Source of the DNA: Dryococelus australis
Lineage: Eukaryota; Arthropoda; Insecta; Phasmatodea; Phasmatidae
Length of the DNA stretch: 64,000 bases
Assembly: GCA_029891345.1 (NCBI GenBank)
Contig: CM057009.1
Coordinates: forward strand, 307,064,666 to 307,128,665
Direction of reading: 5' to 3'
In this document: positions 2,887 through 53,091 of the stretch, one piece after another
Numbering within the stretch: the stretch's first letter is position 1
How the letters are laid out: each line of letters starts with the position of its first letter
Translations under genes and position numbers: made by a program
The notes under the pieces: model-generated
Told to the model about the DNA's origin: nothing
What the model saw: only the letters and a program-made list of their open reading frames with translations
Database searches by the model: none

Positions 2887-2999
2887 CAATACGACCGGCA
2901 CATGTGTGCATCCCCCACCTGTATGCCCTATTACCGGCCCCCATTTTTCTTTGTCCACTTTTCCTTTTCGTCCACCTTTCCATTTCCCTCCCCCTGATA

Positions 3000-10230: not shown

Positions 10231-10565
10231 GGCTGTTCACGATAAAGTGAGCACTTTTGAAATTAACCTTACAAAAAAGTCACTGTCCCTGACTGAATAT
10301 ATTTTAACGGGCGTAATGAATGACATGCGTCCAATAAAGTTGGTAACACGGGATGTTTTTTTTTAATTCATCGATTAGTAAAAATTAGCAGATTTGTAAA
10401 ATATTTACTTTCATAATAATTTCACTGTTTCACTTGACCGACGCTTGGATAAAATGATTAGGCCCATGGCTATGCTAAGTTTACATAAGGCGGATGAATA
10501 CACAACGTGCATACAAGTAGAACCTGAGTAGGGTTTTCAAAAGTGCTCATTTTACCGTGAATAGC
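10231..10565. mobile_element. MITE family A, complete copy
   Basis: The left terminus 'ggctgttcacgataaagtga' followed by 'gcacttttgaaa' is mirrored by the right terminus ('aaaagtgctcattttaccgt', then 'gaatagcc'). This gives a ~335 bp element with ~30 bp inverted ends. The interior contains the 'cacttgaccgacgc' and 'ggcggatgaatacacaacg' blocks shared with the other copies. No ORF; non-autonomous. Confidence 0.85.
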
Positions 10566-10828
10566 CTATACTCATAAGTATTCTGCGGGAATACACAGCA
10601 AAACGCCTGCAAGCGCAGCCGTTGTCTCGTTATGAGAAAACACGATGACATACACGGAATTATATTCTCCTTTTGTAAGGTCATATTTTGCTTTTTTTCT
10701 TATTTGGTTATCTGAAAAAGCTTTCGAAATGAAGTTATTAGTTGTCAAATCATTACAGTTTTCAAAATATGCACTCAAAATTCTCAATTTCCCGGATTCT
10801 GCAGCATACTAGCCTTTCCTCCTAGATA

Positions 10829-11152
10829 TTTTTCCAATCGAATTGCATTTAATGCTATCTGTATGGTGTGCAGAACATACTGATTCAGTACTAGTGCGAT
10901 TTATAAACATGTGAGCGAGTATTGGCGCACTGAATTTTTCCAATCGAATTGCATTTAATGCTACCTGTATGGTGTGCAGAACATACTGATTCAGTACGAG
11001 TGCGATTTATAAACATGTGAGCGAGTATTGGCGCACTGAATTTTTCCAATCGAATTGCATTTAATGCTATCTGTATGGTGTGCAGAACATACTGATTCAG
11101 TACTAGTGCGATTTATAAACATGTGAGCGAGTATTGGCGCACTGAATTTTTT
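10829..11152. repeat. Tandem repeat, 3 x 106 bp
   Basis: Three head-to-tail copies start at about 10,834, 10,940 and 11,046, each holding 'ccaatcgaattgcatttaat' and ending 'attggcgcactgaattttt'. By eye the copies differ at one or two positions, so the expansion looks recent. Confidence 0.9.
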
Positions 11153-13090: not shown

Positions 13091-14914
13091 GTAGTATAAT
13101 GGTTCCAACTCATTTTTCTAAAACGAACCACCGTCTCACACAGTGTTCGTATGTGTAGTACAGGATAATTATGTATACAACTTACAGACTTTAATGATTG
13201 CCGAGGACTGATTGTGTCTTTGAAGCCCGAGCTAGAGAAGGGGTTTATTAGAAATTTTACGATGCATTAGGATGGAAGCCAAGTATGTGCAAAATGAGCA
13301 ATGGTTCCAATTTCAGAAACTCCTCGCCCTACGAAACATGTAGGACCTATCTGTTTACAGGAGGGTTATTCCTAATTCTCTCCTTCCAACGAAAAACGAT
13401 AGATTCTTTACAACTGTCTGCTCAGACCACCGTTCGGTATTCTAAGCAAGAAATGAAGGTAGAGTGACGTCACGAGTGGATTCGGAACGTCTCAACTACT
13501 CACAAGCAGTTGGCAGGCTAGAATTCCGTAGTCAAACCAATGTGGCAGGCGTCGGTATTAAACATGGCCGTGTATTTCAATGATACCCGATACAAATGTT
13601 GTGCGGTATAAATTCAGTGCAGCACGTGTTCGTGTTGTACGGAGTTGTAATTTTCCTACACGCATATTTACGATACGAGTAAGCATGAGAAGATCGGTCT
13701 CAACTATTGCAAACTTGCACCACACACGCCCGTCCTTCTTAAACATTGTGCACAACGTGATACGGGCTATTTTACCCTTGGGGTGATATTACAAGTGCGT
13801 AAATGTACGGATACTCGATACTTATTCGATAAACTACTATTATCTTACCGTAGATAAACATTTAATCGTCCGTTAACCAGTATGTGTTTGGTGGTCAAGT
13901 GGTTAAGGTTCGTGTTACGTAATACGATCGTCGCGATGGTATGAGAGCGAAACTTTTTACCTAGTTTAATTTTTAATTTGCTTAAATATTGTGAAATACA
14001 GTTATGTGATATATGTGATAACAGCATTTAAAAAAAAAGCAAGCTTATAAGCTGTGTACGTTTGTATTTTGGACCCTAATAGCCAACAGTTTGGAGTGTT
14101 TTGGACCTGACTCTGTTAATTTAAAATTGAAATATAAAATTTGATAGGTAGGCCTTATATACTGTAACTAAAACGGATCGTGAATAAATTTAATTACTAT
14201 GGATATATTCTGTAATAAAATGACAATTCCATTCAGTGATTCCAGAAAGTAGAGACGTAACAAATTCAGTGACATTTAATAATTTAAAAACTTACTTTGA
14301 AGCCAAAATGAATAACACAAATACATTCAAATTCTTCGTTCCTAAATATGCTCCCTCTGTACCAAATAAATATTTTCTGCGCTGGAAGGTTATTGGCGTT
14401 TAATAAACCCTAGGATTTATATGTGGTAAAAAGGGAGGTCAAGTTATTTAATTCGCACCAAATTCAATACCTGTGGGGTAGGGGGTTAGCAACACTATAA
14501 TAATTTATCAACCAAAGAAAAATTGTATGAAGCCAGTAACTAAGTCAATATTACTTATTTTATATTTATTCAAAATAATCACCTTCAGTTGCACTACGGT
14601 TAGGAATATTAGTCAAATCGATTCAAGATGTGAACATTTCTTTGTTATTCAGGATAGTTTTACGTGAAATCTATAAAATCTACTAACATTGCTTCACTTA
14701 GCCTTGGCCAAATATTTTCTTTACCACATATACAAATAGTTTGCTAAACACCCGGGCCACATCCATAACACGTAAACATCTATGTCTCATGAAGGGAATA
14801 AAAAAATACATTTCAGCATGGCTACCAACCACACTTTCTCAAACTCCGCACAAAATTAAAGAAATCTGTACACTATTATTTTCTTATAAAATACATATTT
14901 GTAATCATATACTA
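13091..14914. other. Unassigned stretch left of the Polinton
   Basis: No supported gene. A palindromic TGACGTCA octamer sits at 13,465-13,472. A tRNA-Ser-like 'gtggtcaagtggttaagg' at about 13,891 has an A box but no B box. The short ORFs at 13,558-13,786 mirror each other on both strands and show no domain. Confidence 0.5.
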
Positions 14915-15219
14915 CACGGGTTTCATGTCACCTTGGATTAATCGGGATTAATTAATGGATTATCTATTTGATTGATTGGATCAATCTTAAATACGATCAA
15001 ATTTTTTTAATCGGATGAAGGATTAATCTTAATCGCAGAAAATGTGACCAAAGAAATATGATCAAATTTGTTTGATGAAAAAGTTTGATCAAATTTTTTG
15101 ATGACTTTTTCGTGTGTATGGTTCTTTATTTATTTCTTTCTTTTTTGGGGAGGAGGAGGAGGTAGCAGGAGCTCTGTACGATGTTTACGGCGTGGTGTTC
15201 TGGAGGCGATGACCAGAGT

Positions 15220-15435
15220 ACAACTCATCATTGCCGAAGCTCAGAGCAGGGGGTGTGCTCGGGCCCTTGTGAGGGCCCTTATACCACCCATTCGGTTGCA
15301 GCAGTTGTATCTCTCTGCGGGCTGAGGAAGTTTCCCTCTCCAGACCGCAAAGAACACATAGCCCAGAGGTCAGGACGCCCTGCACGTCCCGGCGCAACTC
15401 AGACAGCCCGCCAGTCAGACCAGCAAGCCGCGGTT
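15220..15435. repeat. GC-rich extra segment in the left Polinton arm
   Basis: A ~216 bp GC-rich stretch is flanked by a perfect 12-bp direct repeat, 'gatgaccagagt' (15,208-15,219 and 15,436-15,447). The right arm has a single copy of the equivalent site and lacks the segment. It is either an insertion with target duplication or ancestral sequence lost from the right arm between short repeats. Overlapping ORFs here have no recognised domain. Confidence 0.6.
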
Positions 15436-17769
15436 GATGACCAGAGTGGTAGGGCTGCAATATCTTATATAAGAGTAGAGTTGAGTGCAAGAGTGGACTA
15501 AGGCTCATTTTTTTCTAATTTTTCTAATTTTGAGTTGTTTGTAGGTATGTTGGTGGTAGGTAGACGATTTTTAAGAATATATTTAACACACGAGAGAGAT
15601 TCAGAGTGTTTAAACAATTTCTAAGAGTGGCCTAGCTGTAAATTTTATGTTAATTGGCGGATATTGCTCGTAGACGGGGGTGGGAGATAGGCGACTTTAA
15701 AATATGTGGTTTACATGATAACCAATCTGTTTTCGGAATGCAATTAAACATTAGAGAATTTCAGAGTGAGCTACACGTGAATAAATTACATGCATCGAAT
15801 CGGAAATTTTAAACGACTACTTGTATAATAAGTGGTATTATGTGAGTCTTAAACATGAAGTGAGTCTCGAGCATAGAAATGTAATTTACACAAGAGAGAA
15901 TTTGAACTACATGAATAACATCTGATGTCGACAAGTGTAAACTCAATAAACGAAATCCAACTAGCCATTACGAAATTACACAAGGCAGAGTCTTTAAACA
16001 AGTTCTATGTATCAATGAATAACACAAGATACAAGTATAATGAATAACTACTGTCTTTAAACGAAATCCAGCTAGTCAGTATGAATAAACAACACATTAA
16101 CATGTTTCAGCCTGGAGAATCATATTTTATGGCAAAAAAAAACTCTGAATACGATTTAAACCAAACACAATATCGTGCGTCTATTCTGATAAGTAAAATA
16201 TGTAACATATAAAATCTTACATCAAATGATTTATTTCAAAATTACCAACTCGCACAGAGTGTTATCCCACATAGCTTTATATATAACGGAAAAAATGCAC
16301 AAACTTCCTCTGAGAGAGGATTATTATTAAAATAACAGACGTACTACAGATCTGTGCAAATATAGCACACTTGTTAACGCAAACTGTATTTTTGTCTACC
16401 GAACACAGAAATGGATGATTTTATCGTAATATTGACTAAACACAAGAAAAAAGTTTCTCGATAAAATAGTTTTTATATTAAAATGTTGATCATGGGTAAC
16501 ACTATAGAGATAAAGGTATGTGTTTTGATCGCCGGTGCGTAGTTTGAGCTACCCCTAGGGTGGCCTTGTCGGCCGCCATGTGTCTAGAGGTGAGGTGTTT
16601 AACTGGTTCAGAGGAGCTGATGAGTAACACGTCTGTCTCCCACAAGCATTGTTGACGAATAAATATGGCGGCGATTGTGATAGCTGAGGTCACTTGGCTC
16701 CAGAGCTCCTGCTACCACCTCCCCCACCCCTACCCTCCCGCCCCTTGCTGGAGTGCGAGGATCTAAGGCAAGATGACGACAACTGATTAGTTACATTCAG
16801 ATCACCCAGCTCGGCTATAGACATCCATTACCCTCCTAGCCTACCCTACACCCCTTGTCCAGAGGGACATGACCCTGTCCACCCACCCCTCCAAACCCTA
16901 CTCCAGAAGCTGTCTTTATGCGAAAAGCAAGTTCTTCTCCAAGACCACATTTACAGATCCCTCCCCCACTACAATATTCAGCAAAGTATTTTTCTAGTGA
17001 TGGTTTCCCTGCTTCAACTCGCCGGCATTTCACCCCAAAGTGTTGCCTCGGCTATGAACAAAGCTTGCTTCAAGACCAAAGCGACGGCTTCCCTAGGGAG
17101 GCAGCAGTGAATTTTGAACTGTCCTGTACTATTTCTCCTATCCTCTAACAACTGTTATTTTTCGCTCAGACACTGAAGCTTCCTCATATATTTCGGAAGG
17201 CAAGAGCCTAGTGCATTCTCAGCAAATAAAAAAATGTCTCATCCACCCCCGATAAAACTTTATATACCTGAAATATTATAACCCTGAAGTAAAGTTTCTT
17301 TAATACCCTACATATTCCGTAGATTTAACATTCCAACAACAAGTGTAACCCTATATTTGAATCAAGAAAACTATGATTTGTAAAACCACATAGAAATACA
17401 AGGCATATTTTTTAAAGTACTAAAACAAACACACATCTTTATTCAAGTTTAACTATTATGATTTAAGCAAATAATCAAGTTAAACTTTATTTTCAACCAT
17501 TGAAAACATACGTTAGACAAACATTTTGGAAAAGTTGTTTTAGTTTGAAAAAATGTATATTTCAAGTATAGTTTTTCCTAGCCAAAATTTTTAGAGAGTA
17601 CTATAATATAGGAAAATATTATATAATCTCGCTATAATTTATCTGGGAAAAGTAGTTGACTACAACGAAGTATTTTTAAAAAAGATACAGAGACGAGTCA
17701 TTCTAAAACCTCATGAACAATACCAGCTAACGGATAGTCGAGAATTGAGTGTATGCGAGAGTGGGCGAT

Positions 17770-17910
17770 ATTTAGGTCTCGAGAGCTCATGAGGGGGAAA
17801 CCTGGTGAGTATGGAGCAGTGTAAGATGCGGGCGGGTCGGTGTTTGGCTCGCGCGGGGGAGATATGCACGTGGCCCGTCGGGCGAGGGAATGAGAGAATG
17901 CTACACTAAA
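17770..17910 (-). mobile_element. Degraded SINE inside the left Polinton arm
   Basis: On the minus strand it ends in 'tgagctctcgagacct' and contains 'gctccatactcacc', the tail blocks of the SINE seen at 0.5, 33 and 53 kb. A matching remnant lies in the right arm near 27,400-27,490 in the opposite orientation. Confidence 0.55.
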
Positions 17911-18660
17911 CTGATGCTGTCCATGCCGCGCCGTGCGCCACTATCGATACCCACCTGCTTCCATCTGCTAGACAATTTTCCCTTCACGCATAGAGCTTGA
18001 TGCTCACCGCTGCCGCCTGTACAATTGGGCTAGGAGAGAGAACTCCCCCATCCCTCTGCCCAGACAATCTTCACTACACAATGCGCGTTGCCCTGTCTAC
18101 AGCTCACATCCACTTTACGCAACGATTTTCCTTGGCCTGTCTCGCCCTCGTCTCGTCTTTCTTTCCCAGCTACACATTTGGAGCACGCAGACTATTATTA
18201 GCAAAAACGAATTGTTTTATTATTTATCATACTTTAAAATACACATTAAAAAATATACTGTGAGTTACTCACCACCATGAAAAACACGTTCAATGTTACA
18301 CCATAAAAAATTTCATCCTAAGACACATCTAAAAGTTTTTAGCATGGGGAATATTATTTTACTCTCTTAAAACTCATCAATTTCCTAGAACTGTATCGAT
18401 ACAAGCAAAGAAATATAACCTACTATAAACAATTATGAAACCCAGCAAAGTATTCCAATAAACTAATGATGATTTACATTACAATTAAATAAAAAAAAAA
18501 CATGAACCACTATAGAAATCTAATTAGAGAAACAAATTCCACTAAATTTTATCCCGATTCCAAGAAACATGACATAAAAACTATAAAATAAATCACATTT
18601 AAAAGGAATCTAATACAATGAATTAACACCAAAACACAGTGAATTACAATACATACCAAA
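17911..18660. other. Polinton inner flank, no gene recognised
   Basis: The segment between the left arm and the integrase is AT-rich with no recognised coding. If a DNA polymerase gene was ever on this side, no trace remains that I can see. Confidence 0.5.
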
Positions 18661-18669
18661 TACACTCAA

Positions 18670-19640
18670 TTAACACCTAAATGCGAATTTCCAATCTATC
18701 ACAGTTACCAATTTTTTAAGATCTTGATTCTTAACCCAGGAGTCATGTGCTTTTGAGAATCCTCTCCATCGAACTAAGCTCATTTCTTTCTTCCTTTTAA
18801 TGATTTTATCAACCAAATATTCATTTGGAGAACTGACTTTTTGCAGTTCATGTTCATAACATCCTCCTTTTATTGGTTCTCCATCAGATGTTTCTATGTA
18901 ATACATTCTGGAATGTGTTCATCTAATTGAAATAATTTTTAATATTTCAAAAGACCAATTCACTGTAAATTTTTTCTAAAAGATACCTTTCTGCTTCGAG
19001 ATACGTAAAAATTCCCCAACTTTGAACTTTGGTTTTCTTTCATCAATGACTTTAACATTATTATAATAAATTTCCATTAAACTATTATCCATAACTTCTT
19101 TGGGAGCCACCTTGACAGTTCTATGATATCTATTATTATAAAATTTAACTATTTCAGGCAAAACATCAACCCATTTGTAAGTCCCCCTCGATGTGGAATG
19201 TTTATATATTAACTGTTTAATCAATTTAGTGTATCATTCCACAACAATGGTTTTAAGCTCCGAATACTTTGCGTAGTTATTAATAACATATTCAGCCATT
19301 AGTTTTTAGAACGGCGAAGAAAAAATTCGGTTCCTCTGTCAGTTTCGAGCGAAATGGGCTTTCAAAATGATCTTCATTGCATCGGTAGCCTGTTTCTAAG
19401 TTTTGTTTTTCAAAGGTTTATCCCAACCATATTTCGAATAAACATCTATTATGGTTAAAATATATTTGTATCCCTTATTGTATTTTGAAAGCAATGTCAT
19501 TTCACACAAATCAGCTAGAAAAAGATCATTTAAACCACAAGTTATAACTCTTCTTCTAGGATATCTTATCCTTGCAGGAGCATGAAGCTCTTGAGCAATC
19601 GTACTAAACTTAATTTGTAATATAACCATCTTCCATTAAC
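18670..19640 (-). pseudogene. Polinton integrase (fossil)
   Basis: Polinton integrases are retroviral-type DDE enzymes with a C-terminal chromodomain. On the minus strand the N-proximal part shows LHAPARIRYPRRRVI and then NKGYKYILTIIDVYSKYGW, a hallmark stretch of this family. A C-terminal core shows YNNRYHRTVKVAPKEVM. A chromodomain with YLVDKIIKRK and WRGFSKAHDSWV follows at 18,670-18,906. The gene is broken. The order relative to the ATPase and capsid genes fits a Polinton. Confidence 0.9.
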
Positions 19641-20275
19641 ACTTCAATAATAGAAACAATTTCGTTTGTATGTGAATTATTCCCAGACTCTCTCGATGTG
19701 TTGAGAAATTTTAATCTATCGACCAATTCATTAGGATTATTCCAATATACAGGTGAAACATGATTGTCAATTTCGTCTTTATATATTACACTTCTGGCTA
19801 TATCTCATATGAAATGTATTTTCGGATGGTTTTCATCTGCTGAACGAATATTAGCATTCGTTCGACGAATAAGTTGTTTATATTTCTGCAAAGCAGTGTC
19901 AGAATATCCATTTGGAAAGTTTTAAAACATTAATTCTAATAATACTCCACTAACATCAGTTACGTAATCACCTATTTTAAGTTTATTTTCAGGCAAAAAT
20001 TTAATCACAGAATCTCCCAGGAACCAATTTTTTTCATGTCAGCAAACACAAAATGTTGTATCGCGTGTAGACATAGATAGTTTTAATGTGAAATAACATT
20101 GTGTTAATAGAGAAAGTAATTGCTTTTTCTTTGTTAAAGCTTCATTATCCATTTTAATTTCAAAAGCTGCTTCTTTAGATTTATTAAACACAGAATGCAA
20201 TGTATCCATGCTGCTCGTAACAAGTTTATATATTTCTTCGGGTAAAACATCCTGTTCCATTGGATGTTCATTTGG
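19640..20275 (-). pseudogene. Conserved Polinton accessory gene (fossil)
   Basis: On the minus strand, directly upstream of the integrase, coding traces include an N-proximal stretch beginning MEQDVLPEEIYKLV (20,039-20,260). C-proximal HTNEIVSIIEVL resembles the 'NEI(I/V)SI' C-terminal motif common in an uncharacterised gene of arthropod Polintons and adintoviruses. Function unknown; a structural or accessory role is only inferred from conservation in that gene set. Broken. Confidence 0.6.
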
Positions 20276-20279
20276 CTTT

Positions 20280-21090
20280 CAAATATTTCTCTTTCACAGC
20301 ATATATAACATTATGTAAATCCGAAACAGAGGCAGACAAGTTTGATTAAGTTACATTACATTCAAACTATTTATATGTGTATTAATTTGTTGCTTGCTAA
20401 CTGATGTAGTAGATCGACTACTTTGTGTTTTTTTCAATATAATCGATTTTATAAAAAAAAACTATCTAATTTACTTGCAGTTTTAGCTTTCAAATTATTA
20501 TTAAAATAATTAACACTTGTTTCCAAATCATTATTTTGTTTTCTCAAATCTGTTTGTGTAACTAAACTAAATATTTTATTAATCAATTCATCTCTTATAT
20601 ATTGCATTATTTGTTCCATACGTGTTTCAAGTTGTTATGCAATAGTAGTATTTACCACTTCATTAATTACAACTCTTAAATTTTATTGCATTTCTGTACA
20701 TTGTGTTGTAAATACTATGTTTGTCATATCATTAAAATACTTACTAAATCCTTTTAAATTTTCTTCTGTTCTAAATTAATTACTCTACAAGTCAGTCATA
20801 ATATTGCTTACAATGTTTGCAATTACACTCGTGTTTTATAAACATTTTCATTCAAATCAACAAACTTTATTAATTTCTCTTGAATATCATCTGAATGTAT
20901 TTAAATACATTTAGCATAATAGTGTTTAAGTCTTCCATGTAACATTTACTTACCACACTCACTACGTTTAACCGCCATACCCATATCACATAATATATGT
21001 CCATTCAAATAACAATTCCCGTGGGTTTTTTTTATTAAACAGCTATTGTAATGATTGTGTTTTATACCGCTATACCGAAATTTTTAAATA
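20280..21090. other. Polinton core, AT-rich unassigned stretch
   Basis: Minus-strand coding-like traces exist between the accessory gene and the ATPase, but I recognise no domain. Confidence 0.4.
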
Positions 21091-21099
21091 CTTATTGTT

Positions 21100-21835
21100 C
21101 TTCACCTGGAAGTAAAAAAACTGTCAAAATGATACATATAGCTGCCTTTATATAGGGGATGTGTTGATATAATCACCACAAAACAGTATTTTTTGTTCCA
21201 ACAGTAAAAACACATATCTTTAAACTTTGTAAATGTCATATCGCCAAAACATTATCATTGTAAATATGTTGCAGATTTATTTAATCCATTTTAAACACAA
21301 TTACCATATTTGCATTATTGCATAAATTATGTTTTGGTATATGTGTGTAACTTTGTGAAAGATAAAAACAATCAACATTTGAATGTCGACCAAAACTAAA
21401 GTATTTCTGTATTTAACCCAGCAGTTCACACCAAACATCGTCAAAAATAAATACAGAATTGGGTAATGCTTCATTCGGAGGCACTATATCTTCTTTATTT
21501 GTAAAAGGGGAATATCACATTTCTTCAATTAACACTAAAATGGTCCCTAACCATTGATATTTTTCTTGTTGTATTGTTTTAGAAAACACATATACGTTTT
21601 TAAATTTAAGTCCATTTGGATGCTCCAACAACGACATAATAACACAAGTTTTTACACATGAAGAAGGACTGCTTGTCATACAATATATATTTGATGGTAA
21701 AAGAATACCATATTTTTGTTTAATTACATTTTCTTTTGTATTTACAATTACTGGCAGATGTACACTTTGTTTTATAACCTTCATTTCTACACAATTACAC
21801 AGTATTGTGTAATGTACTAACATAAATCTATAAAT
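21100..21835 (-). pseudogene. Polinton DNA-packaging ATPase, FtsK/HerA type (fossil)
   Basis: This enzyme pumps DNA into the capsid in Polinton-like viruses. The minus strand reads KVIKQSVHLPVIV near the start, then a Walker A region, then NGLKFKNVYVFSK. PPNEALPNSVFIFDDV, the Walker B region with its paired Asp residues, follows. All are in the order and spacing of the family. The gene is broken. It diverges from the plus-strand capsid cluster that begins just after it, as in many Polintons. Confidence 0.85.
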
Positions 21836-21869
21836 GTATGTCTATATATATAGGCTAGAGTTCAGTTAA

Positions 21870-22412
21870 AAACAATGGCTTGTACAAAACATATAAAAAA
21901 GGATGCTGTGTATTGAATACATTGCTTAATAAATTGCCAGTTGAACTACATTTACCGAACTACAATTATTGTGAACCAACTACTAAACATACAAAACGTT
22001 TAGCATGGAACGACGAAGGTATAAAACACTTTCGATAACACGTGTAAAGAACACTATTTAGTTTACAATTGAACAAATGATTTTAAAAAGAAAGAAATAT
22101 AGTGGACACAATTATAGCCAATAAAACAGCAAATATAAGGAAGAATCCATCTACATCTACAGGTGAAAAGCTTGTAGCATAGGTTGTTGATTAAGGTATG
22201 TGCTCGAAGGTGAAGAGAGGCATGGGATTAAAATGCAAACCCAAATAAAAACCAAGAAAGGAGGAATCATTCCATTCCTATTTCCAGCATTAACAGCTCT
22301 TGGATTAATCCTCCAAGGGGTCCCGGCAATTAGTAGAGCAGTTAAATCAAAAGATAGAGGAATGTATTTGAAACCCTATAAGTCCTTAACAGTCTTCCAA
22401 AACATGCATTAA
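21870..22412 (+). pseudogene. Polinton PLA2-like / minor virion protein (fossil)
   Basis: The upstream part reads LPVELHLPNYNYC, matching the start of the parvovirus-VP1-like phospholipase A2 region in Polinton and adintovirus virion proteins. The downstream part (22,200-22,412) has a basic stretch, a hydrophobic FLFPALTALGLILQG segment and the hallmark GMYLKPYKSL. In related viruses this protein helps membrane penetration. Broken. Confidence 0.75.
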
Positions 22413-22740
22413 CAAAAAATATATTAATGTATTTGTAAAGAAACTGGATAGTCCCTATTTCCAAGGTGTGTATAAGAGAGATGATTCACCAAAGAAACCA
22501 AATCTTTGCGAATGTACGATTGTTAATTTAGATTCGAAACAAAATGAAGGGTTGCATTAATTAAAAACATAAATCAATCATTGTATTATGACATTATCGC
22601 CGATTTACGTCCTCTAATTGAAATTCATAATTATTTCAAAAACATACAATTAGGATACAATTACAAAATGGAGCAATTGCCAAATAAAATCACATGCAGA
22701 CATTTAGGTTTACTTTTTTGGCTTTAATAGGGTATATAAG
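22405..22740 (+). pseudogene. Polinton adenain-like cysteine protease (fossil)
   Basis: This is the maturation protease of Polinton-like capsids. Coding traces read FVKKLDSPYFQGVYKRD, then CECTIVNLDS, then DLRPLIEIHNYF and CRHLGLLF. These correspond to the N-terminal region, the His-box neighbourhood and the C-terminal Cys-box region of the adenain-like family. Broken. It lies between the PLA2-like and penton-like genes, a usual Polinton position. Confidence 0.75.
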
Positions 22741-22759
22741 TAATTGTAATAATAAAACA

Positions 22760-23410
22760 TATTAGTAATATGTCAATTATGTTGATATTAAGTGGAAATT
22801 TGTAGCAATTGTGTGAGGTATATTTGCATTTGTTAGAGTGTGATGGAGAATGGCAAATAAGTCTAATAGATTTTGTTACCTACAACAGCATACTAAACAT
22901 TGATATGCATAACCAATCATTTACTGCTAATATTGGTGAAAAACATACAAGATTGTGATACCAGTAGCATCTTATAAATCGAATGAAGTTGAAACATTCA
23001 TTCAAGAGGCATTACCTTAAGATGTACATTTCCGATTACATGGAAATCCAAATATGTTAACTAGTGCAATGTATAGTAATGTTGATATTGATTTCTCAGA
23101 AGACAATTCAATTTAAATATGTTAGGTTACGAATGGAGTCTTTGTCCCGCTAATGAATTTCATTAATCATTAAAACATGTTAATATATTGTCGGTAAATG
23201 TATGTCATATAAATGTTAATATTGTAGGCGGTTCATATTTGAATGGAAAACTGACAAATACTCTACATGAATTCGCATGTACTGTGGCTCCAGGATATAA
23301 AATAATTGAAAAACCAAATACATCAATATATCTTCAGTAATAGTTAATCATGTTTATGAAATAGTTGGTTCAATTGTCGATCAAGATGGTACCTAAACTT
23401 GTTAATTTTA
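22760..23410 (+). pseudogene. Polinton penton-like minor capsid protein (fossil)
   Basis: Single jelly-roll penton homologues of Polintons carry a recognisable 'GSY(I/L)NGK' segment followed by 'P(G)YKIIE' and 'IVDQDG'. Here GGSYLNGKLTNTLHEF, APGYKIIEKP and IVDQDG appear in that order, preceded by IPVASYKSNEVETFI. Broken. It lies immediately upstream of the major capsid gene. Confidence 0.78.
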
Positions 23411-23489
23411 TAAATGAATAAATTACTGTTAGTTTACATTAAAAAAAAGCTATATAAACAGTTGCATTCCATTGCACATTACAATCATA

Positions 23490-24720
23490 ATGGATATAGT
23501 GTATAATAGTAAATTCGGACGTAAGTAGGAGGATCTTTTAAGAACTATATCTGTTAGGAATGTATTTCAAAGTCAGGAAGTGTAAAAATATGTAACCACA
23601 AGCATAAAATGCTCACTTCAAATAAGTTACCTGTGAAGTTGACACAAGGCAACGAATTGTACATAAAAGCATTAGGATATACTGTTAATAGAAATGGAAG
23701 ACATATTTAATGTTGAAGAACTGATCACTTATGAAAATGCAATCGCCAATCTAGAAATACATGTGTATGAACATTTCCAACCAGGTCCACATGTTTCCTT
23801 TAGAAATAAGGATTTCTTTACAAAATCTCAATATTTACACATTACCTTCGAAATCAAATTTAAGGTTTAGAGGAACAATTAATAATACAGCTGATGGAAG
23901 TAATCCAGTAAGTACAAAAATGATAAGAAATGGAATACTTCATTGAATCGACAGAATTGCAGATCTGCTAAATGGTGTGGAAATTGATGAAACATGAGAT
24001 GTTGGAATTACCTCCATGATAAAGAAGTATCTCTTGAGAACTGTAACTGATCTTTATATAGGGATTATGGCTGGGTGGAACAATTCTAGTAATTACTCAC
24101 AAATATACCTAATTGGGAAATACAAAGTTGTTATACTGTTAAGTATAGTTTTGGGATTTTCTGAAGACCACAAACATGTCAAATTAAATGCTAAACAAGA
24201 ATTATTTATTCTATATGCCAATACACATTTTAATGCTATATACGATTCAGCTAATAACAAGGAAGGTGTAACATTTGATTTAAGCAGTGTGGAATGGTTG
24301 ATGCCACATATTGAAATTAACACTCGTGAATGTGTAAAGTTTTTAAAATATATCGAAAATGGGAAGAATATAGATATTGCCTTCAGATCATGGGATTTAG
24401 AAGTTTTTCCAACACTGTCATGATCACTAAGTCAGTTGAATTGTGAAATCAAGTTTTTCATCGGAAAAACAGAGATAGGTCGTTATTGGTTTTCAAACTA
24501 ATCGACATAACAATTTAAAAGCTGATAGATCAGTATTCGATAATTGTAATAAGAAAAATATTGAACTATATCTAAATAGTCAAGCTTAGCCCTACATGGA
24601 TTTAAATATGAACTTTGAAAATGGGTAAGTCCTTATTTGCTACAATATGCAATCTAAATTTCTGGATATGTATTATAATAAAATTAATTCACTGATTGTA
24701 TAACCAGAATCATTTAATAC
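23490..24720 (+). pseudogene. Polinton major capsid protein, double jelly-roll (fossil)
   Basis: The longest surviving open stretch (24,016-24,423) includes GFSEDHKHVKLNAKQELF, VEWLMPHIEIN and IAFRSWDLEVFP. These are strong hallmarks of the hexon-like major capsid protein of Polintons and adintoviruses. LLNGVEID lies upstream and further capsid traces lie downstream. Broken. In the intact family this protein forms the icosahedral shell. Confidence 0.9.
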
Positions 24721-24989
24721 CAGAGAAACGTTATTTGTATTTTATGAAAACAAGCAAGACAAGACAATTACAAATAGCACCAATTCTAGCAAATATGCAA
24801 TCTTTTGCTCAGATAATTTACGATATACTAGTGAGTTACAATGTAAGATGTAAGTTGGTGAAAATAATTAATTGAGCCAGTAGGCAATGAACCATGGCTG
24901 CAATGAGATGTTTTGCAATGTGCAAGGATTTCAGTCTGTAGAAAAAAAATTGTCATTAAAGAATTAGATATTACTGATATGGAAGAACA

Positions 24990-25330
24990 TACAACTATAT
25001 TCAGATTCAAATCACCATTTGACCGGAAATATCTAATTCCCAAATACAAGAAAACAAAAAAATTGCCTTCCTAATCATCACCATGGTTTAACCTGGGAAA
25101 GCGGATGTATAGAGTATGGGAACGTTGAAGATATTTGCAAACATTGCCTAAATAATTGTGAAATAAATGTAAGTGAAGTTGAGCAAAAAAAATTTTGCAA
25201 AATGTGTATAATGGGAAAGTAATATATATTCAAAAAGAATACAATTGTCCTTTTTTCAAACAATTATGTAAAACATAAGGATCTAATTTAAAATTAATCT
25301 CTGCAGAGAAAACTCGAAATTAATGCAAAC
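24990..25330 (+). pseudogene. Short coding trace after the capsid gene (fossil, unknown)
   Basis: One plus-strand frame reads HHGLTWESGCIEYGNVEDIC. The 'HG(L/I)xWESG' style occurs in small uncharacterised ORFs of arthropod mobile elements. No function is assigned. Confidence 0.35.
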
Positions 25331-27395
25331 CTGGACAATGATGACTATGATGATTCTCCTCCCGAATCACCTGTGGTTATTATTCTTGTCATATGGCATT
25401 ATTTTGGACGAGTAAAATTTTATATAAAAGTATTTACGTATATGATGTCAACTAGTTGTAAAGATTGATCAAAAAGATAATGAAATCACCTGTTCTTGCA
25501 TACAGAAATCAAAATGTAAATTGAATATCAGCAAGTTACTAGCATGGTAGAGCAAATCATTTCGACTTTGTTTTGGCAAGAAATAATTATGGGTAAACTT
25601 GTACTTTTTAGTAATAAAATGATTGAAACGAGTATGTACCTTGTATATGTTTTTGAACGTAGTGTACTGCTTCAGTTTTGAAATGTTTTTTGGATCACCC
25701 AGTACTTGCATATATTTTGAAACAATTGTATAATATGTCATATGTTTTGTAACATCCTATAGTTTACTAATTTATGTCAATAAATTATTGTTTAAAAATG
25801 AAATTCTTTCTTAAAATTTATTTTCCCTATTCTTTATTAAAAACAATCTTGTTTTGGTTAAAAAATAATAATTTTTCCCCAGAGACTATTGAGGGAAAAA
25901 ATCTGGAAACAAGCACTCTAATTGCTTTTCCATGACTAATTTTATAAACTAACATCCCAGATAAGGTTTGGTTGATATATGCTGAGTTTGAATATGGGTT
26001 AGGTCATGTACAAATGTAATCTTGTTTCCTTTCTAAGGGTTCAGACATAATAGATGTTACTGTACATTACAATACATTACATTAGTTTGTTATGATACAC
26101 TACATTAGTATTACTATAACATTCTATCACAGAATAACGAACATAACACTGTTGATTAAATTAAAATTAATTTGCTCGTCCATGTGAAAAAGGTAGATAT
26201 CCTCAAATATATAGATGTTTAAACTTAAATAAATCCTGTGGAATTTTTCTGATGAAACGTTACTAACTTTTTAATTTATAATCGCTTCGAAATTTTAGAA
26301 GAATAACCTTTACCATTGTCTCAACAAACCATTACATTTAGAGATCTCAGGTCTTAGAAGTGTGACTGTTCCTTCAAGGTTAAATTTCAATAGTACCAAC
26401 TACAGAAACCAAGATTTCAGATGTTATCAGTCTGAGTCCAACAAACCCCCACAGAATGCATTTTTGTTTTATTATACCATGGAGACAGCCCAGGCACATA
26501 GCATTTCACAAAGGCAGCAACCAAACACATCCCTGTCCCTGGAGGGGAGCGCATTTCAGGTCAACAATTTTTTCAACTGTCGAGACTAACAAGGTCAAAA
26601 TGTCTTCCTAGCTGTTTGAAATATCTCGAACAAAAATATTTTGTTTTCTACTTGATAAAAATTAATTTTTTCTTTGCAAGCTCCATTACACAGGAAAATA
26701 TATAGAAAAAAAATACACAAGATATAAAAAATGAATAAATATTTAGGAAACAAGTTTACTTCTCCACATACATATTAAACTTTACCAAAGAATTCGATGG
26801 AAATATCTTATAAAATAGAATTTTAACCAAATTGGAAACGTGTTCGGACCCATTAACGGAAAAAAAAATCCATATATGTTTAATGTAAATATGATTATCA
26901 ATATACTGATTAAGAAAAACTGGAACATATTTACTAAATTAGATTGTATGTATCAATAAAAATAACTTCTGAATCATAATAAATAAATAAAGTTTATTTT
27001 ATATTCTATTAAAAACGAATACCAATGCAATTGAGATCAATGTATACATACAATCTAATTGTCAAGTTATGTAAAAATAGCAGTATATTTTTCTGAGGAT
27101 TTACAAGAATTTGGACTTTTTAGTAAAAAAGTAACAATAATGCCAAAATCACTATTTTCCAAATCCAGAAACATGATTTCTGCCTAATATCATACTATTT
27201 TGTTAAACTTATGTAGGAAACTGTTTAAATATTAAATAAAATATAATACTTAAATGTTATGTTGTATGGAATATATTTTGCTGTTGGAATGTTTTTAGTT
27301 AGACATAAAAACAGAGGGCACGTGTTGTCTGAGCGCATATGATGCTCGCTTCCCTGGGCGGATTACAGCATAAAAACAAATTTTTATACAAAGTG
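25331..27395. other. Polinton right inner flank, no gene recognised
   Basis: AT-rich DNA between the last capsid-side coding trace and the right arm. Short ORFs (for example 25,469-25,741 minus) show no domain. No polymerase B motifs were seen on either strand. Confidence 0.5.
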
Positions 27396-27399
27396 TGCA

Positions 27400-30077
27400 T
27401 AGGAGATGTCTATCGTTTCCCCTAGTCTCGCACACAGGACCTGGTGCTTCTCGTCTTGCTTTACCCTCATAGGTTCTCGAGACCTCGTAAAAAAAGATGT
27501 ACAATTCTCTCCCAATATTTATCCTCTCCTATACAAATATATATTTATATTGTTTGAATACTTGTAAAAAATAGTTTTTTAACAAGTGAATAAAATAAGT
27601 CTAGTATTTCTGTGATATTTAACAAATCATAGTTTGCTTGATTCAAATATACATTTCTGTTGTTGTTTGAAATTTAAATCTGGGCCTTATATTTGGAAAT
27701 TGATTTCAGGGACTTGATAAATTTTTTTTTCACTGCTCATATATTCAACCTGTTGCATAAGGTTGAAGCGACAGCGAGTCAGGCCAAATTTCTTGGGGTA
27801 CACATTGAGAGTGCTGCGGCTCGAAGCAGGGGAACCAACACTAGATAACACATTCTGAATACAGTAGCGGGAAAGGGCACGTTGTCTTGAAACAGATTTT
27901 GCAGGAATGTAAATTCACAAAAAAATAAGAAAAGGCATTCTCAGGGCTGATGCTGGGGCGTGTAAAACAGGTTTTGCGAACACCAGGCTCGATCGATAGC
28001 AGAGTTCTAAAGAAAAGTCACCTTTGGGACTAGGGGTGAACAGAACCTTGCTGGGAAGGGAGTGTAGGGGTTTTGCTGGCATCCTGGACTCGGGCTGGTT
28101 CTGTTGTCGAAGGCGTGGAGGGTGGGGTGGCTATAAGCAGCCAGCTCTCGATGTGAACGCAAGTAGGTAGTTGTCGCCATCTTGAACCAGTGGAGAAAAT
28201 TGACAATTGAGGACAGACAGGTGACTAACTCCCAGGACCTTGCAGACATGGTTTGGTGGGGAGGGGGATTGCCGGCATGGTGGAGTCGGACCAGCTCTGA
28301 AGGCAAGGGGTGGAGGGTAGGGGGTGGCTACAAACAAGAAGCTCTTGATGTGAACGCAAGTAGGCAGATGATGCCATCTTGAGAATTATCTAAAACATTT
28401 GACGATTGCAGACAGTGGTCAGCGCACACTGATGGGGGAGGGGAGGGAAAAGTGGGTGCAATCTGGTTTCTGGACCTTAGGGCCATTCAGACATGGTCTG
28501 GAGGAGGGAAAGGGGGTGCAGGCAGCCAGGACCCAATCTACACCTCTTCAGTCAGTCGGTGCCATATTCAGTCATTCATTAAAGCTTGTGGGAGACAGAC
28601 ATGTTACTCGTCAGCTCCTCTGAACCAGCTAAACACTGTACTTGTAGACACTTGGCTGCAATGAGGCCACCCTCAGGGTAGTGCAAACTACGCATCGGCG
28701 ACCATTACACACTCCTTTATCTTTATAGTGTTACCCACGATTAACACTTTAATATAAAAACTATTTTATCAAGAATCTTTTTTCTTGTATTTAGTCAATA
28801 TTGCGATAAAATTTTCAATTTCTGTGTTTGGTAGACGAAAATACAGTTTGCATTAACAAGTGTGCCCTATTTTTGGAAATTTGTTGTACGTCCATTACTT
28901 TAATAATAATTCTCTCTCAGAGGAAGTTTGTGCATTTTTCTCTTATATATAAAGCGATGTGGGATTACACTCTATGCAAGTTGGTTATTTTGAAATAAAT
29001 CATGTGAGGCAAGATTTTACATCTTTACATATTTTACCTATCAGAATAGACACGCGCTAATGTGTTTGGTTTAAATCGTATTCGAGGTTTTTTTTTTCCT
29101 GTAAGATATCATTCTCCAGGCTGAAACGTGTTAATGTGTTAATTATTCATACTGACTAGCTGGATTTCATTCAAAGACTGTAGTTGTTCATTATACTTGT
29201 CTCTCATGTTATTTATTGATATGCAGAACTCATTTAAAGACTCTGCCTTGTGTAATTTCATACTGGCTAGTTGGATTTCGTTTAGTGAGTTTGTACTTGT
29301 CGACATCAAATGTTATTCACGTAGTTAAAATTCTCTCTTGTGTAAATTATATTTCTAAGCTCGAGACTCATGTTATGTTTAAGGCTCATGTAATTCCACT
29401 TACTATAGGCATAGTCGTTTAAAATATCCGATTCGATTCATGTAATTTATTCATACATAGCACACTCCGAAATTCTCTAACATTTAATTGCATTCCGAAA
29501 ACAGATAGTTTAACATGTAATTCGCATCTTTCTAAGTCGCCTATCTCCCACCTCCATCTATGAGCAATATCCACCAATAAACATAAAATTTACACTTAGG
29601 CCACTCGTAGAAATTGTTTAAACACTCTGAATTTCTCTTGTGTGTTAAATAGATTCGTAAAAATCGTCTATCTACCACTAACATCCCTACAAACACCTCA
29701 AAATTATAAAGAATTAGAAAAATGAGCCTTGGCCCACTCTTGCACTCAACTATACACCTATATAAGATATTGCCTTCTACCACTCTGGTCAGTCACCTCC
29801 AGGACACCACACCATAAACATCGCACAGAGCTCCTGCTACCCCTTCCCCCACCACAAAAAAGAAAGAAAGAAAATTAAGATCTACAATCACAAAAAAACT
29901 ACCAAAGAAATTGATCAAACTTTCTTATCAAACTAATTTGATGACATTTTATCCGATTAAGATTAATCCTTAATCTGATATTTTTGGATCGCATTAAGAT
30001 AGGATTAAGTTTTAATCCAATCAAATCGATAATCCATCAATTAATCCCAATGAATCCAATGTGAAATGAAACCCGTG
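27400..30077. repeat. Polinton right terminal inverted repeat
   Basis: Inverted partner of 14,915-17,910. Anchors: 'gttctcgagacctcgt' (27,473), 'catagtttgcttgattcaa' (27,630), 'cagctcctctgaacc' (28,612), the 'ccactctggtcagtcacctc' block (29,780) and the end 'atgaaacccgtg'. A ~195-bp tandem duplication lies within it at 28,100-28,400. Confidence 0.8.
28100..28400. repeat. Subterminal tandem duplication (~195 bp) in the right Polinton arm
   Basis: The motif 'gatgtgaacgcaagtagg' occurs at about 28,150 and again at about 28,345. It is flanked in both cases by 'gtggagggt...ggtggcta' upstream and 'gccatcttga' downstream. The two units have diverged. Confidence 0.7.
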
Positions 30078-33060
30078 CGCTTCTACTGCTTATACTATTT
30101 TTCACGAGCTAAGTAATACAAAGTTTTCTATTCGTGTCTTTAAGTAATTTTTTTTTTCAACGGATTTGTGAAATTTTAAAACGAGCAATTCTAGTAATAT
30201 TTTGTTGGTACGTTGTCGACCGTACGCAGAGACACAAACGTCGTCTAACTTGGGGTGGGAAGCCGTAGATGCCCGTTTGCTCCCCCGTGCTAAACGACTG
30301 CTGAATACCGTTTTGAATTGGACAAATATTTTCGTCGGATGCGAGACGGTGGGTTAATGACGGTGTCGGCAGTTACCGACGAAGCTTAGTATAAGCAGCC
30401 TTATCTAGGTCGTCGCTTGTAGTTCCCTTTAAATTTCGTGATGCCGTGGCAGAATAGGTTTCTAAACGGACGGATGATTACTCAGTGCGCTACACTCTAC
30501 AGAACACTTCGCTTGATTTGAGATAGCAGAGAAGGTTAACAAAACTGCGATTCGTGTGTGACAAGGAAACTTGCGAGCAAATATATTTGTTATTTAATGA
30601 ATTAAGGTGTGGACTTTTGCAAACGATGAAATTTAGGGAAATAACGAAAGGTGAAATACTTAGCTGATTTTGACATTCATAATAATTATTAATTTAAAAA
30701 TAAATCTGCCCACGTAGCATGAAATTCAGTGCAAATTTTGTGCTATAAATTCAGTAATTTGCAAAAAGAAATAATTAATTGTAACGACAAATATTGACAT
30801 TCTTGCAACACACCACAAATTTTTTTAGTACGTCTACAATAAAATTCACTAGAAACCCGGCTGCAGAAAAGGAGTATAATACGCTGCCTTATAACAAAAA
30901 TGCAATGCGTATTTTTTGATATAAAGAAGTGGGTCATATTTCAACTCATATAATTGAGAAATGGAAATAAAGTATTTTTGTTCCCTCAAAAACAACAGTG
31001 ATAAATAAATATATTAAAATCAATTATAAAAACATTCTTATATAATTTACGAAAATAATTGGTGGCACCATATTTTGAACCAGAACTCCGAGTGTTTAAC
31101 GTTCGAGCCATTTATCACAAGACCACTTTGTCTTACGACGTTGCAAAAAATGTTTGCCATAAGACTGATATATGTACCAAGTGGGAAATAAATCTTATAT
31201 TAATGTCATTTCTTTCGAAGCACTAAAGGTGGATTTGCTCCACTTCATAATGACATTATATGCACATTATTGCACATTGCACAGTTCAATTTCATGACTG
31301 TGTACTCTAGTGTTTTATGAATATTCTCGAAGGGATAATCTATTGTTTTAAATTCCTATAAATATAATTATTGTACGTTCTGTTGGATTCAGAAATTACT
31401 GGGTAGGGGGAGTTAGCTGTGCGTAGTTACAAAATCGCTTAAAACATAGGCCTTCCATGCTTGAATAATCAAGGTTAAGTGCAATAAGTCTCGTACATAC
31501 GAAAGAATACTAAAATGTTAAATGCCCTCATTCAATTGTTATGATTTCTATTCAATAGCGCGTGGTTCAAAAATACATTTTTCTTTATAAATTTAAACAT
31601 TTTTACCAGTACGTAATATACTGCAACGTTGACTTCGCGATACAAAGTGGATACTGGTTAGTAAAAACATTATTCTAAATTGTAGTTATTTCAAATACAG
31701 CTCTCGTAACCTTAAAAATGAGGTATTTTGCAAAGAACATTACTGCATTTTTAAAACGATTTGTTTACATATAAATAATATCTCAGTAAAATTATTTTTT
31801 TATTTACATGGCACGATGACAGGAAAGGATGGTGGCTATATTCTGAAGCTAACCTCTCCTATTACTCACATGTTAAACACCGCCTCGGTTACAACTTTAT
31901 TTGGAGCGAAATATAATTACAGCAGTCCTAAACTCATCAAGCGTCTCTGTATATAACGTACCGACGTGAATCCATAACTCTAACTTCATAGTGTCACGAA
32001 GATGAAAACTAAGCATATACTAAAATAAAATTAGATGTTCGTCTCCCGTCACGAAAGGACGAAACATAATGTTAAAGGCAAATTAATGCGCCAGATGAAC
32101 GGCTCGTATGTCCTATCTGACACGTGAGATGCCTTCGCTGAGAGAAAGGTTTGTTCAAAACAACAACATAAGCGGAAACATAATCAGTTACTTACTTTAG
32201 CTCAGGTTGCTCTGACGTAGCGCTCGGCCGTAAACGATGTTCGCTCGATTCCAGTCGTGCTTGCACAATTTTATAGGCCTACTAACCCTAGCTGTTTAAT
32301 TAACGTAGAGACAAAAAAAATCAGTCTGGGGCAATCGAATACGAACAAGAAAAGAATTTGAATTTAACGACAAAATATTTTTATTGTCCCTATACGAACA
32401 ATTAATTCACTTCCGCCAAACTCATTTTGTTTGATTCAACAAAATATTTTCCCGTGTGCTGCAAAATAATTAATATGGTATAATTTATTCGAAACAAAAA
32501 CAACTCCACGTGTCCGGGATCGTTCTTCATTCCAAAAAGAACTGTGCTTCACATTAATCCTAAAATGCCGCTTTAAAAAAAGCCCACATTTCGCAAACGT
32601 TATTTCGTAACCCATCAAGCGCAGCCATAAACGAAATTCCCAAACTGGCAAATTTCTAAAATATTCTGCGTTAGTATCTACGAAACTTGGCTGGGTCGCT
32701 GCACTAAATCTGAGCACAAACTTTTCGACGGAAAAATTAGAGGATCGCAGCTTTTAGACTCGTAATAATAATATTCAGCCATTACGGCGAAATGGTAACG
32801 CTCAGTTTCGATGTGTTATTGAGTGTTCAGATCACTTTCCTATTAGTTTGTCATCTCTCATGGCTGTATGTATTTTCTTTTATTTTTGTACATTCTGGAT
32901 ACATATTTTTTTTATCCCCCCCCCCTTTTTTTCCACCAGGGTTCCCTTCAGGTTCTGCTGTAGTTCAGTGCGCGCGCTGATAGTTTTAACGCCCTGAACT
33001 CCACGGACATTCGACGGTAAATAGATTGGGCTGAAATTTGCATACCTATTTGAATATTTT
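30078..33060. other. Unassigned stretch right of the Polinton
   Basis: No supported gene. A TATA-like 'gtataagcagcc' lies at about 30,390 in a balanced-composition segment (30,220-30,520) that might be repeat-derived. The remainder is AT-rich. The minus ORF at 32,436-32,717 has no recognised domain or supporting context. Confidence 0.5.
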
Positions 33061-33067
33061 TAAATCT

Positions 33068-33328
33068 TGAGCGGAGTGAGAGGCTTTGGCGGCTCTTAAC
33101 AACGGGATCTTGAGAACCGATGAGGGCGAGGAAAGGCGACTAATGAACAACGTCGGAATGAAAGGGAGGGGGGAAACGGGAGATCCCCGAGAAAACCCGC
33201 CGACCAGCGGTGTCGTCTTGCACGATTCCCACATGCGAAAATCCGGGCGCGACCTCGCCCCTGAATCGAGGTCGATTCGCCTAGATGGGAGGCCGAGTAG
33301 TCTAACCACTACACCACTGCGGCCCCTA
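33068..33328 (-). mobile_element. tRNA-derived SINE (copy 2)
   Basis: On the minus strand: head 'ggggccgcagtggtgtagtg' with an A box. The body then has 'cgcatgtgggaatcgtgc', 'ggtcggcgggttttctcgg' and 'ggatctcccgtttccccc'. The tail is 'tctcaagatcccg' and 'taagagccgcc'. Nearly the same block order as the plus-strand copy at 53,092. Confidence 0.88.
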
Positions 33329-33411
33329 TCGCGTATAAGAGGCCTGTTTTTTCTCGCCTTGTTGAAGCTTGCAAAGGAAAATGAATGGTTAAAGGGTTGA
33401 GAGACTTTAAA

Positions 33412-34301: not shown

Positions 34302-34958
34302 TGATAGAGGACACTGATGCTGGTTTAGCGTGTGCGCGTCGACGACGGTTAAGCGACAAAGGAATGCAATCGTGTTTGTGGAGGGCGAACGGATCTAGTA
34401 CCTCCAGCAAGCCACATGCCGATGTAACTGCAGTCACGTTTCCCAAACCGCAGGAATCCGAGGTTGAACTCCAACACAGGAATCGAGCTCCGGTTAGAGT
34501 GTTCACAGACGCCGACCCCCCCCCCCCCCTCCCCCCCTTCCCACCATGGAAACATACGGAAACGTACGCTTGCTTAGAAGAAAAAAAAGAAAGTTAATAA
34601 TGATTGTTGCTCGATGTTATCTCGAGACAGAAATAGAATAATTTCTTCCCGTTAGAACGAGCACGCTACAGCATACCAAGCCACGTACTGTTCCCAAATG
34701 CGCTACTGGACAGCTCTGTGCAAATAGCACACGCTCCGTGCGAAAAACAACTGAGTGGCAAGAGGTGTTACTATTGCTTTATTTCCGGAAATATTTCAGA
34801 AGTTATTCATTACTATCATTTATCAGTAAATAACTTCCCTCTTCTGAACCATTTGACATATTGGGAATTAGTTTTCGTCGTTTGAGTTTTGGCCATTGTT
34901 AAATAAACTTTCGAGGTAGAAAATAAAGTTTCGTTCTCATATCCGCCATGTTGGTAAT

Positions 34959-52930: not shown

Positions 52931-53091
52931 TAACCGATTTTCGCAGAGAGAGTTCTTGCCGAGTTTAATACGAAAACACTTTATAACTCACACCCATTTT
53001 CGCTATTGTATGATTTTTATTTGCTACGTGTCTTAGGTAGCCAGCCCGCGAATCGCAGATGTTCGGTACCGGAGTAAGCTTAATTCCCATA

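What the first reader, a model, noticed from the sequence alone, without database searches (positions are those of the whole stretch)
14915..30077. Polinton fossil with exceptionally long inverted arms and no visible polymerase gene
Seen: a ~15.2 kb element with a virion gene set (ATPase, PLA2-like, protease, penton-like, major capsid) and integrase, bounded by inverted arms that align for roughly 1.8 kb well and up to ~2.9 kb patchily. Known: Polintons usually have inverted repeats of a few hundred bases to about 1 kb and encode PolB. Inference: this belongs to a lineage with expanded arms, or the polymerase was replaced by arm expansion, leaving a copy that depended on a partner element.
Basis: partly seen in the sequence, partly recalled or inferred. 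Interest (0 to 1): 0.7.

Follow-up and report, generated by a model that had tools for sequence, protein, structure and literature searches.

The report
Stick-insect Polinton lineage lacking its polymerase
This is a decayed copy of a virus-like jumping element in a stick-insect genome, from a large family with unusually long mirrored ends that carries capsid and integrase genes but no recognisable gene for copying its own DNA, so it probably relied on another element to be copied.

Summary
The arms are real: 14915-16677 pairs with 30077-28553 (1.76/1.53 kb, 87.6% identity over aligned columns; score 1747 against at most 33 in 30 shuffles). Weak patches reach 17411/27592. Capsid (DJR, 8.6e-24) and integrase/chromodomain remains are there; an ATPase is likely; penton, protease and PLA2 are not confirmed. 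None of the element's 120 open fragments (>=45 aa) matches PolB.

The host is Dryococelus australis, by assembly statistics. Its genome holds a large family with these arms. Two complete relatives (17.2, 18.1 kb) and the relevant part of a third show no PolB either, so its absence looks ancestral to the sampled copies. All three carry a 2.7-3.0-kb stretch between capsid module and right arm, without PolB; of the four, only the window copy has lost it. Five of seven other family pairs measured have arms of 1.4-2.2 kb, and a PolB-bearing element in the same genome has arms of about 2 kb or more, so long arms did not replace PolB. Family ends keep the (AGT)2 motif linked to protein-primed replication.

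Most likely: a PolB-less, capsid- and integrase-encoding Polinton lineage copied in trans by PolB of other elements, which are abundant and partly intact here. The copying step is inferred.

The parts
14915..16677 (+). left inverted arm (about 220 bp at 15220-15437 absent from the right arm); outermost ~10 nt degraded
28553..30077 (-). right inverted arm
30082..30087 (-). right terminal motif, AGTAGT with one mismatch, read inward on the - strand
17321..17411 (+). weak inner arm patch, pairs with 27592-27681, 80% identity
27592..27681 (-). partner of the weak inner patch
18673..19635 (-). broken RVE-type integrase with chromodomain: open pieces 19399-19635, 18979-19233, 18673-18918
   Evidence: 150 genome matches (the cap) with the middle piece
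21518..21841 (-). piece of probable packaging ATPase; its Walker A stretch is degraded here and present in a relative (L048:2350-2706)
   Evidence: weak Pfam ATPase matches in relatives, best 0.0037
22191..22409 (+). short hydrophobic protein piece with a glycine-rich stretch as in small Polinton/adenovirus-type virion proteins (likeness recalled; no database match)
   Evidence: no Pfam match
22390..23113 (+). gene X, identity unknown; homologous (35-52% aa in pieces) to a gene next to PolB at C1:271.11 Mb
23998..24790 (+). double-jelly-roll major capsid protein remains (open piece 23998-24420)
24949..25535 (+). gene C, downstream of the capsid gene, conserved in relatives and in a distant element (L058)
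27040..27062 (.). deletion junction: three relatives carry 2.7-3.0 kb more here, and a ~100-bp neighbour (26937-27046) lies inverted relative to them

Best explanation
The window holds a decayed member of a high-copy family of Polinton (Maverick)-type elements in the genome of the stick insect Dryococelus australis. Shown: the family mostly has 1.4-2.2-kb inverted arms, (AGT)2 ends, an integrase and a capsid module, and no recognisable PolB in the four members examined (two relatives whole, one in part, and the window copy). Inferred: the family lost PolB before it spread; it kept the ends that a protein-primed polymerase needs, so its linear DNA was copied by PolB supplied in trans by other, PolB-bearing elements of the same genome. 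It was then inserted by its own integrase and possibly packaged in its own capsid. The long arms are the family's terminal repeats, kept alike by replication or conversion, and not a substitute for PolB. This copy later lost about 3 kb next to the right arm and decayed.
For: PolB absent: no DNA_pol_B_2 among matches of 120 window fragments (42 at E<=1; 78 at E<=0.1), of 119 fragments (>=55 aa) of two complete relatives (E<=0.1, where 2 of 27 families with E above 0.08 were not displayed), or of 26 L060 fragments (>=50 aa). tblastn with 54 PolB fragments from 20 places gives nothing at 1e-3; at E<=10 the best is 0.037 over 26 residues. Positive control: the same fragments find broken PolB in L038 and L059 at 1e-27 to 1e-126. 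Genome positions: 150 integrase and 150 capsid matches (capped lists) coincide 11 times, window included, 9 of them 4.6-5.7 kb apart; 255 PolB places lie within 25 kb of 0 of 150 integrases, 0 of 150 family capsids, 0 of 126 generic capsid matches, 0 of 40 extra-3-kb stretches and 0 of 40 outer arms. Ends: of 16 distinct ends examined, 8 show exact AGTAGT within 12 nt of the arm edge and 4 one mismatch; PMC8097293 (passages) gives (AGT)2 as the commonest vertebrate Maverick end and ties end-motif repeats to the jumping-back step of protein-primed replication. Target duplications, by eye: 6, 5, 5, 4 and 3 of 6 bases match in five pairs. Possible helpers: 22 matches in a PolB group at 45-46% identity to the query, 18 without a stop inside the match; 150 matches (the cap) of another PolB group, most with stops.
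Against: No PolB-bearing element with the family's own ends was found; the one PolB element fetched (C1:151.72 Mb) has unresolved ends. One inner-arm pair (2 of 40 inner arms, C2:340.65 Mb) has a PolB 9.4 kb outside its left arm. Codon-position counts among copies show no constraint on integrase, ATPase, the gene at 20.0-20.3 kb, gene X or the extra ORF (p 0.26-0.57); only capsid and gene C deviate, so most divergence is post-insertion decay, and selection on a PolB-less lineage is not shown. PolB lists are best-scoring matches, not random samples, and a very divergent polymerase would be missed. 4 of 16 ends lack the motif, the window's left end among them; the window's target duplication cannot be read.
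Confidence: 0.55

Rival explanations
1. The family replicates without any PolB: either by host polymerases through its long arms, or with an unrecognised replication protein, for instance one from the extra 3-kb stretch next to the right arm.
For: All three relatives carry that stretch and it recurs in the genome (40 places scored). It holds an open Ser/Thr-rich region with an 81-bp tandem repeat. Many integrated protist elements lack a detectable polymerase, which their finders say could mean another mode of replication (PMC10120064, passages).
Against: No helicase, primase or polymerase among the displayed matches of 119 fragments (25 of 27 families displayed); the open region shows no codon-position bias (p 0.49), so it may be non-coding; the conserved (AGT)2 ends point to protein-primed copying.
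Confidence: 0.2
2. An ordinary PolB-bearing Polinton family whose examined copies are deletion derivatives, amplified as non-autonomous copies of a parent that is still present but was not sampled.
For: Shorter derivatives with the same ends exist: 8.9-9.0-kb pairs at C1:107.05 and C7:138.76 Mb and a 2.2-kb fold-back at C8:149.48 Mb. Only two relatives were read completely and one in part.
Against: The three relatives share the same sequence in the same place, without PolB, so they descend from one PolB-less ancestor; 0 of 150 integrase and 0 of 150 capsid matches lie near 255 PolB places.
Confidence: 0.18
3. PolB decayed beyond recognition in this old fossil.
For: The copy is old: arms 12% diverged, genes in short open pieces.
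Against: Capsid and integrase in the same copy are still recognised; broken PolB elsewhere is found easily; the relatives show none either.
Confidence: 0.04

Closest known systems
Polintons/Mavericks (Polintoviruses)
   Same: 15-18 kb size, inverted arms, (AGT)2 ends, probable 6-bp target duplications, RVE-type integrase with chromodomain, DJR capsid gene, probable ATPase
   Different: no recognisable PolB, which PMC4642659 (passages) says all Polintons encode; no protease found; arms longer than the 46-1,447 bp of intact vertebrate elements (PMC8097293, passages)
Tlr elements of Tetrahymena
   Same: integrase, ATPase and capsid genes without PolB (PMC4028283 and PMC4642659, passages)
   Different: Tlr encodes a superfamily 1 helicase in place of PolB; none was found here; host is an insect, not a ciliate
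Integrated Polinton-like viruses of protists lacking a detectable polymerase
   Same: capsid and often integrase without a recognised polymerase (PMC10120064, passages)
   Different: those are in protists and often carry a primase-helicase or a helicase fused to an unknown domain; none seen here

Membership tests
Polinton/Maverick | protein-primed PolB | tested here: not met
   none in 120 window fragments, 119 and 26 fragments of relatives (in one search, 2 of 27 families with E above 0.08 not displayed); tblastn with 54 PolB fragments negative, control positive
Polinton/Maverick | RVE-type integrase | tested here: met
   weak in each piece: chromodomain 2.3e-5 just under cut-off, rve 0.21 in the window and 0.0064 in relatives; piece 19399-19635 alone gave no Pfam match at 0.1; tblastn to the integrase region of other elements down to 1e-15
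Polinton/Maverick | double-jelly-roll major capsid protein | tested here: met
   PF21738 8.6e-24
Polinton/Maverick | packaging ATPase | tested here: inconclusive
   Walker A piece in a relative; Pfam matches weak, best 0.0037; none for the window piece
Polinton/Maverick | adenovirus-type protease | tested here: not met
   no Peptidase_C5 among displayed matches of family fragments; PMC4028283 (passages) finds it in 74% of Polintons, so it is not universal
Polinton/Maverick | terminal inverted repeats with (AGT)2 ends | tested here: met
   arms; 8 of 16 distinct family ends exact, 4 with one mismatch; in the window itself one end has one mismatch and the other is lost
Polinton/Maverick | 6-bp target site duplication | tested here: inconclusive
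   five relatives' pairs match at 6, 5, 5, 4, 3 of 6 bases by eye (the 6 of 6 depends on where one degraded end is set); not readable for the window copy
Tlr element | superfamily 1 helicase in place of PolB | tested here: not met
   no helicase among displayed matches

The most novel reading that the evidence does not exclude
A division of labour between co-resident elements: one population carries capsid and integrase but no PolB, another carries PolB, and the first is a replication satellite of the second that keeps the (AGT)2 ends as its access key.
Probability: 0.3. Interest if true: 0.75.

Novelty: new variant of a known kind. Interest (0 to 1): 0.52.

Why it matters
Polintons are named for polymerase plus integrase. 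A high-copy animal lineage that dropped the polymerase yet kept capsid, integrase and the ends a protein-primed polymerase uses would be an endogenous satellite. It would let one ask, largely from sequence, how polymerase-less elements of this class spread, a question also open for protist relatives. The stick-insect genome holds both sides: many PolB-less copies and PolB genes without stops.

Tried and rejected
Rejected: an apparent step in arm identity in the window (outer 76%, inner 86%) vanished when gaps were not counted as mismatches (all nine 200-bp bins 0.81-0.92). In two relatives (C7:129, C10:28) the outer ~1 kb is 93-99% alike and the inner part 75-91%, which may be conversion after insertion; the other long-armed pairs (C14:71, C7:138, C14:27) are fairly even (0.79-0.89).

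Rejected: Periplaneta americana as host (N50 188.1 Mb, PMC12774602, passages); Dryococelus australis fits (3.42 Gb, N50 262.27 Mb, L50 5, 17 scaffolds, PMC10268593, abstract and passages; contig C4 here is 262,277,254 bp). That C17 is its X (Scaffold_4) is inferred from rank among the contig lengths seen.

Rejected: using C1:271.10-271.12 Mb as a clean PolB-bearing relative. It is a composite of several elements.

Led nowhere: PHROGs (10 proteins, one weak match of unknown function), PDB sequence search, IMG/VR capsid search. Paper searches for PolB-less Polintons or Polintons in stick insects listed nothing on point; they cover only open-licence papers and exact words.

Copy number: 150 x 150 / 11 gives about 2,000 family copies, but both lists are ranked by likeness to the window, so this is only an order of magnitude. 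In one search the lengths of C11 and C15 used for a chance estimate (1.6 neighbours) were guesses.

Left out of counts: ends of the C10:28 pair (L012/L013) were not examined because the arm edge was not resolved there, nor were ends of the other arm loci L011 and L016-L020. Of 43 open pieces listed for the PolB element at C1:151.72 Mb, 21 were scanned; a weak rve match in the mixed set was not placed.
Full report
Observation. The window element lies at 14915-30087. Its arms (14915-16677 and 28553-30077) align over 1495 columns at 87.6% identity, far above 30 shuffles (1747 against at most 33). Beyond them only two short patches pair, the last at 17321-17411/27592-27681, so the patchy reach is about 2.5 kb. 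Between the arms are broken genes: integrase with chromodomain on the minus strand (18673-19635), a probable ATPase piece on the minus strand (21518-21841), and on the plus strand gene X (22390-23113), the double-jelly-roll capsid (23998-24790) and gene C (24949-25535). The integrase call rests on several weak matches: chromodomain 2.3e-5, just under Pfam's cut-off, rve 0.21 in the window and 0.0064 in relatives.

No polymerase. The 120 stop-to-stop pieces of at least 45 residues from 14900-30100 were scanned with Pfam, 42 (E up to 1) and 78 (E up to 0.1): none matches a DNA polymerase. Fifty-four open PolB pieces taken from 20 PolB places of the same genome give no tblastn match at 1e-3 in the window or in L045-L055; at E up to 10, with L060 added, the best is 0.037 over 26 residues. 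The same pieces find broken PolB at 1e-27 to 1e-126 in L038 and L059, so decay like theirs would not hide one.

Host and family. The window lies in a 3.415-Gb genome on contig C17. The statistics match Dryococelus australis (PMC10268593, abstract and passages). DNA searches return 40 scored candidates each for the inner and the outer arm; nine inner-arm and six outer-arm pairs lie 2-21 kb apart, the window's own pair counted in both lists. Two complete elements were read, C7:129.14 Mb (17,206 bp) and C14:71.25 Mb (18,124 bp), and 6.5 kb of a third at C6:52.6 Mb. They are collinear with the window. The 119 fragments (at least 55 residues) of the two complete elements match capsid and, weakly, integrase, but no displayed family is a polymerase; 2 of 27 families, with E above 0.08, were not displayed. 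The 26 fragments (at least 50 residues) of the third, which starts downstream of its capsid match, show no polymerase either.

What the window lost. At 27040-27062 the three relatives carry 2.7-3.0 kb more, homologous among them, and a 100-bp neighbour lies inverted. The stretch holds an 81-bp tandem repeat in an open Ser/Thr-rich region and no domain was recognised in it with confidence. Substitutions show no codon-position bias there (p 0.49), so it may not be coding. Hence this copy has a private deletion, but going by the relatives PolB was not in it.

Family-wide test. The best 150 integrase and 150 capsid matches (both lists capped) coincide 11 times, window included, 9 of them 4.6-5.7 kb apart. 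Against 255 PolB places the counts within 25 kb are 0 of 150 integrases, 0 of 150 family capsids, 0 of 126 generic capsid matches, 0 of 40 extra stretches, 0 of 40 outer arms, and 2 of 40 inner arms, one pair whose PolB lies 9.4 kb outside its left arm. The lists are best-scoring selections, so this is support and not proof.

Arms. Of seven family pairs measured besides the window, five are long: 1.50-1.86 kb (C7:129), 1.48 kb (C14:71), 2.09-2.23 kb (C7:138), 2.02-2.09 kb (C10:28) and 1.40 kb (C14:27); C1:107 and C8:149 align for only 0.3 kb. The PolB-bearing element at C1:151.72 Mb has 2.0-2.2 kb, reaching the end of the fetched piece. Intact vertebrate Mavericks have 46-1,447 bp, mean 402 (PMC8097293, passages). 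So the arms are long for the class, but not in exchange for PolB.

Ends and mechanism. Of 16 distinct family ends examined (17 rows, one end listed twice), 8 show exact AGTAGT within 12 nt of the arm edge, 4 have one mismatch, and 4 lack it, the window's left end among them. PMC8097293 (passages) reports (AGT)2 as the commonest vertebrate Maverick end and ties end-motif repeats to the jumping-back step of protein-primed replication. Compared by eye, target duplications match at 6, 5, 5, 4 and 3 of 6 bases in five pairs. A PolB-less family with such ends is most simply explained by copying with a PolB from elsewhere. Candidates exist: a PolB group with 22 matches at 45-46% identity, 18 without stops in the match. 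Not shown: that any PolB element shares the family's ends. The PolB element fetched has unresolved ends; in the 21 of its 43 listed pieces that were scanned no DJR capsid appeared, its likeness to the family's proteins is at most weak (5e-5), and an unplaced rve match leaves its integrase open.

Against the reading. Codon-position counts between copies are flat for integrase (p 0.38), ATPase (0.57), the gene at 20.0-20.3 kb (0.5) and gene X (0.26). Capsid deviates (8.8e-7), with fewer second-position changes also between family copies; gene C (1.6e-4) deviates mainly through the distant element L058, which is in both pooled counts. Selection on the PolB-less lineage is therefore not demonstrated, and a burst of non-autonomous copies from an unsampled PolB-bearing parent remains possible.

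Known kinds. [quoted passage not shown] by that definition the family fails membership. Tlr of Tetrahymena has capsid, ATPase and integrase without PolB but encodes a helicase, not found here. Many integrated protist elements lack a detectable polymerase (PMC10120064, passages). I therefore class this as a new variant of a known kind: a PolB-less, long-armed Polinton lineage in an animal.

Noticed in passing
window 4907-5344 + (with 1698-6274 +): Reverse transcriptase piece (RVT_1, 1e-9) within a run of long open frames, probably a non-LTR retrotransposon.
   Followed up: partly
window 42724-43814; 51750-52053; 10828-11151: Tandem arrays with periods of 113, 38 and 106 bp.
   Followed up: no
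window 48-205, 10227-10565, 33067-33329, 34955-35342, 39442-39862, 53089-53793: Copies of dispersed repeats in both orientations, about 70-90% alike.
   Followed up: no
L049 1498-3726 (C8:149481997-149484225): A 2.2-kb fold-back element with the family's outer arms and an (AGT)2 end on one side, a miniature derivative.
   Followed up: partly
genome-wide: A PolB group with 22 matches at 45-46% identity to the query, 18 without stops in the match: a young PolB-bearing family in the same genome.
   Followed up: partly
L031 1405-3309 (C1:151.72 Mb): PolB with an Endonuclease VII-type domain between arms of about 2 kb or more; no DJR capsid in the pieces scanned.
   Followed up: partly
L046 4190-4520: 81-bp tandem repeat in an open Ser/Thr-rich region of the extra 3-kb stretch of family elements.
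   Followed up: partly
L045/L046 and L012/L013 arms: Outer ~1 kb of the arms 93-99% alike while the inner part is 75-91%, suggesting conversion between arms.
   Followed up: partly
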